Positions 1,207 through 14,508 of a stretch of DNA of 14,508 bases are shown here, in pieces. The stretch is taken from assembly GCA_030620895.1 (NCBI GenBank), contig JAUXIU010000008.1, forward strand, positions 1 through 14,508, written 5' to 3'. The stretch comes from Deltaproteobacteria bacterium (lineage in GTDB: Bacteria; Desulfobacterota; GWC2-55-46; S146-70; JAUXIU01). The number at the start of each line of letters is the position of its first letter. Within the stretch, counting starts at the first letter, position 1. The notes beneath the pieces are model-generated. The model was not told the DNA's origin. It saw only the letters and a list, made by a program, of their open reading frames with translations, and searched no databases. A program made the translations under genes and the position numbers.

Positions 1207-1992
1207 ATGAAAGAATTAAGTTTATATACAGGCATAGGGGGTGGGGTATTAGGAACAAAACTGCTTGGTTGGAGAACAATAGGATACGTTGAGATAAATG
1301 ACTACTGCCAAAAAATCATCACGCAGAGAATTAAAGATGGAATCCTTGACAAAGCTCCGATATTCAGCGATATCCAAGTATTCATTAATGAAGGGTACGC
1401 CGAAGCATATAAGGGAATGGTTGATATTATTACGGCAGGATTCCCTTGCCAACCCTTCTCAGTTGCGGGGAAACAACAAGGAGAGAAGGACCATCGTAAC
1501 ATGTGGTTTGAAACATGGGAATGTATTCGCATCATACGACCACGGTACGTCTTCTTGGAGAACGTCCCAAATCTCCTTACTCACAAATACGTTCAGCGAA
1601 TATTCGGAGACTTGGTCGAAGGCGGGTATTGTATGCAGTGGCGTTGCTTATCGGCAGCTGAAGTGGGAGCACCCCATTTCAGAAATAGGATATGGATTAT
1701 TGGATTCAACTCCGACTGTAGTCATGCCAGCAGAAAAGGAAAATCCCAACAAGAGAATATACAAACTCCCGAGCGGAAGACAAAGGAAATTATCCAAAAC
1801 AGGTACGGATGGAAGCCTGAATTGGACACAATTGATGTTGCACAAAGGTTTCATTCCTACGATGGAGCTTTGCGAATATTATATGGGATTCCCAATAGGA
1901 TGGACAGAACTAAAGCCCTTGGGAACGGACAAGTTCCGAAAGTGGTTCAAACGGTTTGGAAACTAGCCAACATCCAGAAACAACTACTTTAA
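1207..1992 (+). CDS. C5-cytosine DNA methyltransferase (orphan, short, phage type)
   Basis: The protein should transfer a methyl group from S-adenosylmethionine to carbon 5 of cytosine in DNA. Family motifs occur in order: motif I LSLYTGIGGG (residues 4-13), motif IV GFPCQPFS (78-85, catalytic C81), motif VI ENVP (118-121), motif VIII VGAPHFRNRIWIIG (153-166) and motif X ALGNGQVP (237-244). Length is 261 residues, below the usual 300-420, because the target-recognition part between motifs VIII and X is only about 70 residues. The ATG at 1207 is chosen because GGTGG at 1196-1200 lies six bases upstream. No restriction enzyme partner is visible; the neighbour on the other strand is a VRR-NUC nuclease whose stop overlaps this gene's end by nine bases. 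Such orphan enzymes usually protect phage DNA from host restriction. A second coding-like frame runs inside this gene (see the next entry). Confidence 0.9.
   Translation: MKELSLYTGIGGGVLGTKLLGWRTIGYVEINDYCQKIITQRIKDGILDKAPIFSDIQVFINEGYAEAYKGMVDIITAGFPCQPFSVAGKQQGEKDHRNMWFETWECIRIIRPRYVFLENVPNLLTHKYVQRIFGDLVEGGYCMQWRCLSAAEVGAPHFRNRIWIIGFNSDCSHASRKGKSQQENIQTPERKTKEIIQNRYGWKPELDTIDVAQRFHSYDGALRILYGIPNRMDRTKALGNGQVPKVVQTVWKLANIQKQLL
1298..1966 (+). CDS. Overprinted frame nested in the methyltransferase gene, resembling phage 'GFPIGWT' proteins
   Basis: This 222-codon frame is shifted +1 relative to the methyltransferase and lies entirely within it. It is not an arbitrary shadow in appearance: residues 85-116 (TSSWRTSQISLL, then FSEYSETWSKAGIVCSG), residues 124-140 (EHPISEIGYGLLDSTPT) and residues 191-215 (ending MGFPIGWTELKPLGTDKF) look like a protein type I recall from phage genomes, with motifs of the form 'FSETWPKSG', 'GLWPTPT' and 'WVEWLMGFPIGWTDL', often labelled methyltransferase-associated or hypothetical. 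The ATG at 1298 has only a weak upstream GAGA; ATGs at 1337 and 1388 are alternatives, and all recognisable motifs lie after residue 80. It may be a truly translated second gene, or a shadow whose sequence is forced by conserved methyltransferase motifs. The family match is from memory and unverified. Function unknown. Confidence 0.4.
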   Translation: MTTAKKSSRRELKMESLTKLRYSAISKYSLMKGTPKHIREWLILLRQDSLANPSQLRGNNKERRTIVTCGLKHGNVFASYDHGTSSWRTSQISLLTNTFSEYSETWSKAGIVCSGVAYRQLKWEHPISEIGYGLLDSTPTVVMPAEKENPNKRIYKLPSGRQRKLSKTGTDGSLNWTQLMLHKGFIPTMELCEYYMGFPIGWTELKPLGTDKFRKWFKRFGN

Positions 1993-9046: not shown

Positions 9047-9385
9047 ATGGGAGAGGAAGAGAAGGATAAAACAGAGCCGGTAGACCCTGTACCAGAAGAG
9101 AAAAAGAAAGATTATGTGCATGGCGATATGACCGAAGTCCCCACACGGGAGGAAGAAACGCCACCGGAAGAGCAACCCGAGGCTCAGGTAGAACCAATCA
9201 TCACCATCTTTCCAGGACCAAAAGGGTTGATAGTTAAATACAGGAAAGGATTACCAGTACATGAAGCGAGAGGCATTCTCAAGGAAGTAGATTCTATGTT
9301 ACAAATAAATACTATTGTAAACCACATGAAAGCCCTGTTCAATCCCAGGATCGTCAAGCCTGCATTTAGAGGTGTTAAACACTAA
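9047..9385 (+). CDS. Small acidic phage protein, last gene of the rightward operon
   Basis: A 112-residue protein of unknown function. The first 50 residues are rich in E, P and K with no hydrophobic core (for example EEEKDKTEPVDPVPEEKKK), so probably disordered. Residues 51-105 look folded: a strand-rich segment IITIFPGPKGLIVKYRKG and then a helix (HEARGILKEVDSMLQINTIV) with a basic end. The ATG at 9047 has AAAAGGAG six bases upstream. Its stop codon overlaps the stop of the convergent minus-strand gene, with no terminator between them. Position after RecT suggests a recombination or single-strand-DNA accessory role, inferred only. Confidence 0.68.
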   Translation: MGEEEKDKTEPVDPVPEEKKKDYVHGDMTEVPTREEETPPEEQPEAQVEPIITIFPGPKGLIVKYRKGLPVHEARGILKEVDSMLQINTIVNHMKALFNPRIVKPAFRGVKH

Positions 9386-9651
9386 GCCGGCTTGAATCTA
9401 CCACCCCACTGAAGCAGACGTCGTTTATTCCAACCATGCAGCGTCTGCCGTGGGGACTTGGCTATCGCTACAATCATCGCACCACCCTTACCCATCCAGT
9501 CGCCCATCCAGCCAGGACCCATCCAGTCACCCATATATCCTCGGCTTACACCAGTGGTTGGCGGTACAGCCTCGTCTTGCTGCCCCATCCAGTCACCTAG
9601 CCAGTCGCCCATCCAACCACCCATGTAGCCACTGTTAGTATCTTTGGGCAT
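9382..9651 (-). CDS. Tetrad-repeat protein rich in W, M and G
   Basis: An 89-residue protein with two runs of four-residue repeats: YMGG WMGD WLGD WMGQ (residues 9-24) and YMGD WMGP G WMGD WMGK (39-55). Each unit is aromatic-(M/L)-G-(D/G/P/Q/K). A 14-residue linker with AVPPTTG separates the runs. The C-terminal third has a short hydrophobic stretch (GGAMIVAIA) and a basic end (WNKRRLLQWGGRFKPA). The start overlaps the tail-fibre stop as TGATG without a separate ribosome binding site, so it should be made by coupled translation and act with the tail protein. I do not know a named family. It could be a virion surface peptide or an assembly factor. The repeated codons argue against a chance frame. 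Confidence 0.6.
   Translation of the reverse strand: MPKDTNSGYMGGWMGDWLGDWMGQQDEAVPPTTGVSRGYMGDWMGPGWMGDWMGKGGAMIVAIAKSPRQTLHGWNKRRLLQWGGRFKPA
9491..9597 (-). repeat. Imperfect direct repeats encoding the WMGD tetrads
   Basis: The forward-strand unit CCCATCCAGTC(G/A)CC occurs at 9491-9504, 9518-9531 and 9584-9597, with partial copies beside them (near 9503-9512 and 9601-9616). They encode the WMGD units of the overlapping gene on the minus strand. Copies differ mainly at third codon positions, as expected for repeats kept by selection on the protein, though replication slippage may also have spread them. Confidence 0.7.
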
Positions 9652-12858: not shown

Positions 12859-14508
12859 TTACTCGCAGGATGAACCTGACCATGTAATCACACCATTCAA
12901 GACCGTGCCATAAGACCAACCCGCATCGTCTGTGTCTCTTACCTTCAAACAACCTCCAGAAGCCTTATCTATTTCAATTAAACCCTCTGTTATATAAGCG
13001 GCTCTGTTGCCTGTTTTATCATTGATAGTAAGGTTGGGAGGCTCGGATGCCGCCCCATCGTGCTGTCCGAAAGTGAGCCAACTACCACCTGTGTCTGGAT
13101 TAGCATACAACCCCGAATATTCCCTGGCTTTCACCCAATCAAGAGTACGGACAGAATTAGAAAAAGTTATTTCATCAATTTTACCATCAAAACCATAAAA
13201 CCATGTTCCACCACTACCTAATCTACCAATCTGCAAAGGGAAAGTGGTGGTTTTCGCATCTCCCATCGTTCCACTTGTAATGCCATTTGCATCAAGAACT
13301 CCATCAATAAATATCTGAAATTCAGTATTATCTTTTGTGGCTACTATATGATACCACTGTCCTGTTGATATTGTTCCAGAACTATCTAAATAAACCAATG
13401 AATCATCACCTTTTGCAACTCCAACTTCCAATAAATCTGTGGCTATTATTTGGAAAAAGTAATTAAAGTCTATACCCGACGAGTTATCTTTGTCCGATTT
13501 TGCAATTATTCTTTCAATGCCACCTGAATCAACATCTCTGTAAATCCACATTTCCATTGTAAAATTCGTTGTAAAATCTAAAGAGTTACTATCACCCACC
13601 TGTATATATTCAGACGAACCATTTAAATCCCTACCTTTATCTATTTTACCTGCAATCGATGTACTGCCATCAGTTCCATCATTATTGTTAGATGTGGAAT
13701 CATCCATTTCTCCCTCTGCCTTATCTTCATTAAGATGCCATACTGCCACATAATTAGAGTCCCATGTAGTTTCCTTATCAGAGCCATCGGAAGGATTACC
13801 ATGACCATAAACCAAATATATATCCGTATCGGCATCAGCATCCAATACTGGTATATTGACACTATACCAAGCATCCTCTCCTGAAGTATCATAGGACTCA
13901 ACTTCAAACTTTAGCATTTCTATGACAGGAGAATTGTCGTTATGAGAATCAGCCACAGAACCATTTACCCCTCTGGTACAGGTGGTAAAAGTGGTAGCAC
14001 CTGTCCCTGTGCAGTCTATTTCCTCTGAGTCTATGCTCAATCTATTGGCTGTGGGGAAACCTGTCGTTGAATCAACAGTTATTGTTGTTGCGGAATCATC
14101 GATTGTGCCATCAAGCAAGGTATTGTTCAATCCTGCAAACCTTGCATAAGTGCCAACACCATCATCGTTATCCCAAAAACCTGTATTTGTAGATGGAATA
14201 TTTATTGCTATCTGGAAATTTGTTACATCACCACTCAGACTTAAAGTGCCATCATCAGAGTCTGTAGTTTGCTTCTGTCTGTAATAATAACCATCAAGTC
14301 TGTCATTGGCCGCTATACCTGAAAATCCAAATTTCGCTCTTGACTGACCTGTGCTTTGGTCACGAAGATGAACCCCTGCATTGTAAACTGTAACATCAGC
14401 ATCATAGGTTGTAATCCCCTTTGCTCCAAGCATACCGAACGGGCTTAGACAAGCACCTTCACAAAAGTATGTAAATCTTATGTCTCCCTCTCCTGCTGTA
14501 TCATTGCC
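12859..14508 (-). CDS. LamG/DUF2341 tail protein, N-terminus cut off by the window
   Basis: The frame stays open to the right edge; 25 codons upstream of the first ATG (14433) continue without a stop (GDIRFTYFCEGACLSPFG), and that ATG has no ribosome binding site, so the true start lies outside. Counting from that ATG, residues 70-104 and 172-235 look like DUF2341 (FQIAINIP, then LKFEVESYD, IYLVYGHGNPSDGS and WDSNYVAVWHLNE). Residues 245-440 are a LamG/concanavalin-like lectin domain (DDSTSNNNDGT, YIQVGDSNSLDF, TMEMWIYRD, WYHIVATKDN, FYGFDGKIDEI). Residues 104-172 form a separate inserted module. The protein probably binds host sugars as part of the tail. The gene ends ten bases before the next start; its stop TAA is part of that gene's TAAGGAG site. 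Confidence 0.82.
   Translation of the reverse strand, partial: GNDTAGEGDIRFTYFCEGACLSPFGMLGAKGITTYDADVTVYNAGVHLRDQSTGQSRAKFGFSGIAANDRLDGYYYRQKQTTDSDDGTLSLSGDVTNFQIAINIPSTNTGFWDNDDGVGTYARFAGLNNTLLDGTIDDSATTITVDSTTGFPTANRLSIDSEEIDCTGTGATTFTTCTRGVNGSVADSHNDNSPVIEMLKFEVESYDTSGEDAWYSVNIPVLDADADTDIYLVYGHGNPSDGSDKETTWDSNYVAVWHLNEDKAEGEMDDSTSNNNDGTDGSTSIAGKIDKGRDLNGSSEYIQVGDSNSLDFTTNFTMEMWIYRDVDSGGIERIIAKSDKDNSSGIDFNYFFQIIATDLLEVGVAKGDDSLVYLDSSGTISTGQWYHIVATKDNTEFQIFIDGVLDANGITSGTMGDAKTTTFPLQIGRLGSGGTWFYGFDGKIDEITFSNSVRTLDWVKAREYSGLYANPDTGGSWLTFGQHDGAASEPPNLTINDKTGNRAAYITEGLIEIDKASGGCLKVRDTDDAGWSYGTVLNGVITWSGSSCE

What the first reader, a model, noticed from the sequence alone, without database searches (positions are those of the whole stretch)
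1298..1966. Second protein-like reading frame overprinted on the cytosine methyltransferase gene
A 222-codon frame lies entirely inside the 261-codon methyltransferase gene in the +1 frame, and both frames look like real proteins over the same bases. The methyltransferase frame keeps motifs IV, VI, VIII and X. The other frame shows FSEYSETWSKAG, EHPISEIGYGLLDSTPT and EYYMGFPIGWTELKPLG, which I recall from stand-alone phage proteins of unknown function. The relation may be general: a typical motif VIII, GAPHRRDRIWIVAYP, read +1 gives a sequence like ERPIEGIGSGLWPTP, and a motif X of the type VDRLKALGNGQVP read +1 gives GWTDLKPLG-like peptides. So this phage family may have arisen by overprinting on methyltransferase genes, or the overlap may still express two products.
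Basis: partly seen in the sequence, partly recalled or inferred. Interest (0 to 1): 0.82.

Follow-up and report, generated by a model that had tools for sequence, protein, structure and literature searches.

The report
Methyltransferase with its subunit overprinted
One stretch of phage DNA appears to encode two partner proteins in two reading frames, the catalytic part of a DNA-methylating enzyme and the part that reads the DNA; the same layout recurs in many related genes, where usually only one of the two is annotated.

Summary
Inside the window's C5-cytosine methyltransferase gene (1207-1992, "alpha") the +1 frame is open for 222 codons (1298-1966, "beta"); none of 20,000 synonymous shuffles left it open. 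It is not a shadow. Alpha has motifs I-VIII and X but no motif IX; motif IX and the variable (target-recognition) region lie in beta. In 186 close pairs of related loci, substitutions between motifs VIII and IX pile up at beta's third codon position, upstream at alpha's. Over motifs IV-VIII, 175 related genes have 5 stops in +1 where 494 are expected; 28 other C5 methyltransferases show no depletion. The best reading is a two-subunit enzyme laid out like M.EcoHK31I, with subunits in overlapping frames. In this clade the layout is the rule: 74 of 80 viral loci fetched by alpha alone. No clear stand-alone beta was found in 238 loci. In 101 of 163 loci a second start codon lies 4 nt after alpha's, and the +1 frame behind it is nearly free of stops. 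Two products, their complex and methylation are inferred, not shown; structure prediction was uninformative, and the mean synonymous rate does not drop.

The parts
1207..1992 (+). alpha: C5-cytosine methyltransferase frame, 261 codons, motifs I-VIII and X, no motif IX
   Evidence: (PF00145 positions 1-190 of 324, E 2.9e-39)
1298..1966 (+). beta: +1 frame ORF, 222 codons, stop included; start codon uncertain (ATG 1298, ATG 1337 or TTG 1421 are candidates)
1295..1297 (+). TAA in the +1 frame directly before the first beta ATG
   Evidence: sequence
1438..1452 (+). alpha motif IV, GFPCQ (catalytic Cys)
   Evidence: sequence and alignment
1558..1566 (+). alpha motif VI, ENV
   Evidence: sequence and alignment
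1666..1695 (+). alpha motif VIII, GAPHFRNRIW
   Evidence: sequence and alignment
1418..1702 (+). beta N-terminal segment over alpha motifs IV-VIII (overprinted segment)
   Evidence: family model bN, 103 bits
1703..1858 (+). variable (target-recognition) region, read in the beta frame; alpha's reading of it looks like an unconserved linker
   Evidence: codon-position test on related loci; close relatives of this region in beta proteins P0001-P0004 and P0006-P0008
1859..1960 (+). beta motif IX region (core MGFPIGWT at 1883-1906)
   Evidence: family model bIX, 62 bits
1867..1965 (+). alpha motif X region (KALGNGQVP at 1912-1938), overlapping beta motif IX on the same bases
   Evidence: family model aX, 56 bits

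Best explanation
The locus encodes a two-subunit C5-cytosine DNA methyltransferase whose subunits lie in overlapping frames. Alpha (frame 0) supplies the large catalytic domain with motifs I-VIII and the closing helix X. Beta (+1 frame, inside alpha's gene) supplies the small domain, that is the variable region that reads DNA plus motif IX, preceded by an overprinted N-terminal segment that may dock on alpha. Neither should methylate alone; together they would form one active enzyme, as reported for M.EcoHK31I. Both frames would be translated from one mRNA: in most relatives probably from tandem start codons 4 nt apart behind one ribosome-binding site, in others, probably the window too, from an internal start. 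Supported by computation here: both frames are maintained, and which segment each encodes. Inferred: two products, the complex, methylation, docking by the N-terminal segment, and internal initiation in the window.
For: Alpha lacks motif IX. The beta C-terminus matches motif IX, which mycobacteriophage relatives carry in frame. Codon-position rates between VIII and IX are 0.279/0.089/0.068 at alpha positions 1/2/3, the reverse of 0.153/0.095/0.314 over IV-VIII (186 pairs). Stops in +1 over IV-VIII: 5 observed, 494 expected in 175 loci; 2 observed, 143 expected in 64 of 80 loci fetched by alpha alone; controls 111 observed, 111 expected (28 other C5 methyltransferases). Four fourfold-degenerate alpha sites nearly frozen (0.00, 0.01, 0.01, 0.05 against a median of 0.56). 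Second start codon 4 nt after alpha's in 101 of 163 loci, 98 of these 101 open through codons 8-71 with 45.7 expected. Phage YungJamal carries alpha (gp7) and beta (gp6) as two annotated genes that overlap by 209 nt in different frames.
Against: No expression, binding or activity data. Two AF2 models were of low confidence and Foldseek found nothing. Mean synonymous variation over IV-VIII is not reduced (0.527 against 0.512 over I-III), and the averaged +1 conservation excess is not above a small mycobacteriophage control. Mycobacteriophage enzymes with an in-frame small domain also match the beta N-terminal model in +1 (up to 88 bits), so that part of the similarity is not proof by itself. 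The hhalign match of beta's end to canonical motif IX is in the right register but weak (E 0.047, probability 0.6%). The window's beta start has no strong Shine-Dalgarno. The published summary puts the predicted TRD of M.EcoHK31I in the large subunit, here it falls in the small one.
Confidence: 0.86

Rival explanations
1. Programmed +1 ribosomal frameshifting after motif VIII makes an alpha-beta fusion with the small domain, beside unshifted alpha that supplies motif X; beta has no start of its own.
For: Some database proteins begin in the alpha frame and end in the beta frame (P0050, P0075, P0078), though indels would give the same. In the window no beta start has a strong Shine-Dalgarno.
Against: A shift after motif VIII does not require the +1 frame to be open upstream, yet it is. 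Second starts 4 nt behind alpha's go with openness from that point on. YungJamal gp6 is annotated with a start of its own.
Confidence: 0.08
2. Beta is made but is not a subunit: an independent protein, for example a regulator or anti-restriction protein, that merely overlaps the methyltransferase gene.
For: Beta's N-terminal segment has no known homologue in Pfam or NCBIfam.
Against: Beta contains exactly what alpha lacks: motif IX and the variable region, in the place where canonical enzymes carry them.
Confidence: 0.03
3. Shadow artefact: the +1 frame looks protein-like only because the methyltransferase frame is conserved.
For: Frame-0 homology does create +1 similarity; mycobacteriophage enzymes with an in-frame small domain are hit by the beta query this way, and the averaged wobble excess does not discriminate.
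Against: 5 against 494 stops with negative controls; between VIII and IX the alpha frame is not the conserved one.
Confidence: 0.02

Closest known systems
M.EcoHK31I (YGGCCR), two-polypeptide C5 methyltransferase
   Same: Large subunit with motifs I-VIII and X, motif IX on a smaller second polypeptide (passage in PMC3404938). From recollection only: the small subunit is encoded inside the large one's gene in another frame.
   Different: The passage places the predicted TRD in the large subunit; here the variable region falls in the small one. The tandem-start, nearly coextensive form seen in many relatives is not described in the passages I could read.
M.AquI (CYCGRG), split C5 methyltransferase
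   Same: Enzyme split between motif VIII and motif IX into two polypeptides (passage in PMC3404938).
   Different: In M.AquI motif X is on the small subunit; in the window it is in alpha. Relatives with X in the beta frame exist: L016/L095 (one contig), L093, L112, L140 and YungJamal gp6.
Mycobacteriophage C5 methyltransferases of the IrishSherpFalk gp71 type (L003, L251 and others)
   Same: Same LLPTP-type variable region and motif IX.
   Different: Variable region, IX and X are in frame with I-VIII in 26 of 30 loci, so one chain suffices there.
PHROG families 1008, 26627 and 35493
   Same: They match the N-half and the C-terminus of beta.
   Different: They carry only the labels 'DNA methyltransferase' or 'unknown function'; phrog_1008 also matches the in-frame C-terminus of L003.

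Membership tests
C5-cytosine DNA methyltransferase (PF00145), single chain | Motifs I, IV (PCQ), VI (ENV), VIII and X in one frame | tested here: met
   alpha
C5-cytosine DNA methyltransferase (PF00145), single chain | Variable region and motif IX in the same chain | tested here: not met
   PF00145 match stops at position 190 of 324; IX lies in +1
M.EcoHK31I-type two-polypeptide C5 methyltransferase | Large subunit with I-VIII and X, without IX | tested here: met
   definition from the passage
M.EcoHK31I-type two-polypeptide C5 methyltransferase | Motif IX on a second, smaller polypeptide | tested here: inconclusive
   the motif-IX-like peptide lies in a second open frame under selection; that a polypeptide is made was not tested
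M.EcoHK31I-type two-polypeptide C5 methyltransferase | Predicted TRD in the large subunit (as stated in PMC3404938) | tested here: not met
   codon-position test puts the VIII-IX region in beta
M.EcoHK31I-type two-polypeptide C5 methyltransferase | Both proteins needed for methylation | not testable with these tools
   needs an assay; for M.EcoHK31I known here only from a title in a reference list
M.EcoHK31I-type two-polypeptide C5 methyltransferase | Sequence homology to the M.EcoHK31I subunits | not tested
   sequences not identified in the collections; original paper not held
M.AquI-type split | Motif X on the small subunit | tested here: not met
   X is in the alpha frame in the window
Same-strand overlapping gene pair | Second frame kept open beyond expectation | tested here: met
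   controls
Same-strand overlapping gene pair | Reduced synonymous variation in the first frame | tested here: inconclusive
   four sites nearly frozen, no drop in the mean; averaged excess not above a small control

The most novel reading that the evidence does not exclude
A large family of C5 methyltransferases in phages, bacteria and archaea uses one stretch of DNA for both halves of the enzyme. Most members start the two subunits at tandem start codons 4 nt apart, so that a single ribosome-binding site would set their ratio. Beta's N-terminal ~100 residues arose de novo on the catalytic domain's codons, while the DNA-reading domain was moved into the second frame, where it is swapped as a module. 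This may be one of the most widespread long same-strand overlapping gene pairs in prokaryotes, and one that annotation mostly misses.
Probability: 0.5. Interest if true: 0.85.

Novelty: new variant of a known kind. Interest (0 to 1): 0.7.

Why it matters
Long overlapping genes in bacteria and phages are considered rare and are hard to prove. Here an overlap comes with a predicted biochemical reason, since the two products would complete one enzyme, and with many related sequences to test it on. It turns 'is the overlap real?' into a methylation assay. It would mean that many genes annotated as DNA cytosine methyltransferases encode only half an enzyme in the annotated frame, that some 'hypothetical proteins' are the other half, and that predictions made from alpha alone lack the specificity determinant.

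Tried and rejected
Structure route: AF2 of the window beta (alignment A4) and of the L118 beta (A6) was of low confidence (mean pLDDT 64.6 and 61.7, pTM 0.31 and 0.25), and Foldseek against the PDB gave no match with E <= 0.001. The profile search of PDB sequences gave only unrelated hits, the best E 0.0002 on a designed kelch-like repeat protein. Whole-profile hhalign of beta against mycobacteriophage enzymes aligned only a 39-column LPTP stretch (probability 97%).

The averaged wobble-excess test looked strong, but its mycobacteriophage control (n 9) showed the same excess, so I do not rely on it. That control may not be clean, because those genes carry beta-N-like +1 sequence themselves. 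The rank correlation between synonymous rate and beta conservation is partly circular, because both come from the same bases; it is not used. A single conserved Shine-Dalgarno for beta was not found; there are at least two start modes. Stand-alone beta genes were looked for in 238 loci and not found.

Literature: nine searches listed no report of this overlap as a widespread family; the library lacks most subscription papers. Papers seen: passages only of PMC3404938, PMC3439449, PMC6456624, PMC4574080, PMC9409062, PMC8227390 and PMC2884959; listings only of the rest.

Full report
What is there. The window is one contig of a 1.26-Mb draft assembly in 231 contigs. It looks like phage DNA: besides the methyltransferase it encodes a VRR-NUC nuclease, a helicase, an HNH protein, a YqaJ recombinase, RecT and a lectin-like protein. 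The methyltransferase gene (alpha) runs 1207-1992, and the +1 frame inside it is open 1298-1966. With alpha's protein fixed and codons reshuffled, 0 of 20,000 shuffles kept that frame open, with either of two codon-usage tables.

What each frame encodes. Alpha matches PF00145 only over positions 1-190 of 324. It has motifs I-VIII and, at the end, X (GNGQVP), but no motif IX. The +1 product, beta, ends in LCEYYMGFPIGWTELK, the counterpart of motif IX. In mycobacteriophage relatives such a segment (LLPTP...LNPAFPEWMMGWPTGWVTQVPGISRNDQLRIIGNGVVPQQ) stands in frame between motifs VIII and X (L003; L011 alike). A model built only from +1-frame motif-IX peptides finds this motif in all 30 loci of the mycobacteriophage set L251-L280: 26 in frame with motifs I-VIII, 3 in +1 and 1 in +2. 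Against 24 canonical genomic enzymes hhalign puts the beta peptides on motif IX and alpha's end on motif X, in the right register but with weak scores (E 0.047 and 0.0022, probabilities 0.6% and 5.3%; N-terminal control E 0.83).

Which frame selection sees. In 186 close pairs of overlapping loci the difference rates at alpha codon positions 1/2/3 were 0.115/0.049/0.273 over motifs I-III and 0.153/0.095/0.314 over IV-VIII, as expected if alpha is coding. Between VIII and IX they turn to 0.279/0.089/0.068: changes fall on alpha position 1, which is beta position 3. In the IX/X overlap all are low, 0.115/0.043/0.120. So the variable region belongs to beta, and alpha's reading of it is an unconserved linker.

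How far upstream beta reaches. In 175 dereplicated loci, stops in +1 are nearly absent from eight codons before motif IV to the end of VIII: 5 observed, 494 expected from synonymous sampling; the +2 frame gives 744 observed, 755 expected. These loci were required to have both frames intact at the C-terminal end. Loci fetched by alpha alone give the same result, 2 observed and 143 expected over IV-VIII (64 of 80 scored), though the alpha query was itself built from overlapping loci. Controls: 28 other PF00145 genes from the window's phylum, 111 observed, 111 expected; mycobacteriophage type 22 observed, 27.5 expected (11 of 32 scored).

Site-level constraint. At fourfold-degenerate alpha codons the median pairwise difference is 0.56, but 0.00, 0.01, 0.01 and 0.05 at the four sites under beta's conserved G, W, P and D (5,648 pairs, not independent). 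At the Gly site, found by a sequence pattern, GGG is used in 115 of 153 overlapping loci, 2 of 14 canonical ones and 16 of 17 mycobacteriophage genes, while GGG makes up 16-19% of all Gly codons in each set. Against this, the mean synonymous rate does not fall in IV-VIII (0.527 against 0.512), and the averaged +1 conservation excess is not above the mycobacteriophage control. So beta's N-terminal half is constrained by being open and at a few residues, not throughout. Since mycobacteriophage genes with an in-frame small domain share the frozen Gly codon and match the N-terminal model in +1, they may carry a relic or another form of the overlap.

How beta may start. Of 163 loci with alignable starts, 131 have alpha's start codon at the expected column. 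In 101 of these a second start, ATG (95) or GTG (6), lies 4 nt downstream in the +1 frame, typically NTGAATGAG. Of the 101, 98 are open through codons 8-71 (45.7 expected; 4 stops, 81 expected). The 30 without a second start are open in 6 cases (3.3 expected) and have 71 stops (67.7 expected); the remaining 32 loci, with alpha's start elsewhere, have 40 stops (45.9 expected). Related loci share descent, so the contrast is not a set of independent events. ATG or GTG at that column has a mean Shine-Dalgarno duplex energy of -8.0, alpha's start -7.5; the site is shared, so this is not separate evidence. Other loci have internal starts near codons 44-60, several with a strong Shine-Dalgarno. The window has no tandem start; its candidates are ATG 1298, ATG 1337 and TTG 1421, with energies -4.0, -2.9 and -5.3 (row L250). 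Its start is open.

How widespread. Motif IX in +1 overlapping motif X in frame 0 occurs in 78 of 80 beta-fetched viral loci, 74 of 80 alpha-fetched viral loci and 74 of 78 beta-fetched genome loci. Genome records include Pseudomonas, Acinetobacter, Halomonas, Bacillus, Roseovarius and two archaeal MAGs (L212, L239). tblastn hits of beta, whose layout I did not check one by one, include Leptospira, Nostoc and Methanomethylovorans plasmids. In the window's own phylum 9 of 395 genomes searched had a beta match, the window's included (at most 7 candidates per genome were scored). Variants: in L016/L095 (one contig), L093, L112 and L140 motif X too lies in the beta frame, as in phage YungJamal, where alpha gp7 and beta gp6 overlap by 209 nt and both are annotated 'DNA methylase'.

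Annotation. Of 16 annotated loci with the overlap that I examined, 11 list only the alpha frame (one as a pseudogene), 4 only the beta frame (three as hypothetical protein, one as DNA-cytosine methyltransferase) and 1 both. This may explain why beta proteins look stand-alone in databases.

Module exchange. The window's beta residues 133-204 match seven proteins (P0001-P0004, P0006-P0008) at 48-53 identities over 70-72 aligned residues, while the N-terminal halves match poorly; P0005 shows the opposite (N-half 76 of 130, C-half 7 of 25). Of eight loci compared, L355 is closest by alpha (126 of 162 identical over I-VIII) but has another variable region. The recognition region is thus probably swapped between backbones within beta's frame.

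Interpretation. The simplest reading is a two-subunit methyltransferase, alpha the catalytic and beta the DNA-reading part, translated from overlapping frames. M.EcoHK31I is the known precedent: the passage read (PMC3404938) says that its larger subunit has motifs I-VIII, X and the predicted TRD and the smaller one motif IX; a title in its reference list says that two proteins are required in vitro. That the small subunit is encoded in another frame within the large one is my recollection, the original paper not being held. The window fits that layout except that the variable region falls in beta. Frameshifting instead of internal initiation is possible but does not explain the upstream openness. 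A pure shadow is contradicted by the stop and codon-position tests.

Limits. There are no expression, binding or methylation data. AF2 and Foldseek were uninformative. Loci are related by descent, so counts are not independent. The window itself has no close relative with DNA to test its own variable region.

Noticed in passing
L255, L258, L261, L263, L268 against L272, L275, L276 (mycobacteriophage methyltransferases): LLPTP-type modules occur in +1 close behind motif VIII and again in frame 0 further on, and in L272, L275 and L276 the small domain is in +1; recombination between modules may move the small domain between frames.
   Followed up: partly
P0079 (protein of 370 aa): A beta-frame protein interrupted by a homing-endonuclease-like insert (LAGLIDADG_1, below the Pfam cut-off, and phrog_5046 HNH endonuclease) between its SWRTS and SETW-like segments.
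   Followed up: no
L284 1501-2262 (E. coli PCP07014): A prophage copy in which both frames are interrupted at nearly the same place; RefSeq marks alpha as a pseudogene with internal stop.
   Followed up: no
L131, L040, L221: Loci in which the frame of IX and/or X relative to motifs I-VIII is shifted once more: sequencing errors, pseudogenes or further variants.
   Followed up: no
window 9382-9651, - strand: Small ORF of 89 codons with repeated YMGDWMG/WMGDWMG peptides.
   Followed up: no
window 12859-14433, - strand: Large protein with a Laminin_G_3 (concanavalin A-like lectin) domain, possibly a surface or tail protein.
   Followed up: no
PHROG 1008, 26627, 35493: PHROG families that match beta; phrog_1008 matches beta frames at its N-terminal part and in-frame mycobacteriophage C-termini at its C-terminal part, so its label 'DNA methyltransferase' hides a split enzyme.
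   Followed up: partly
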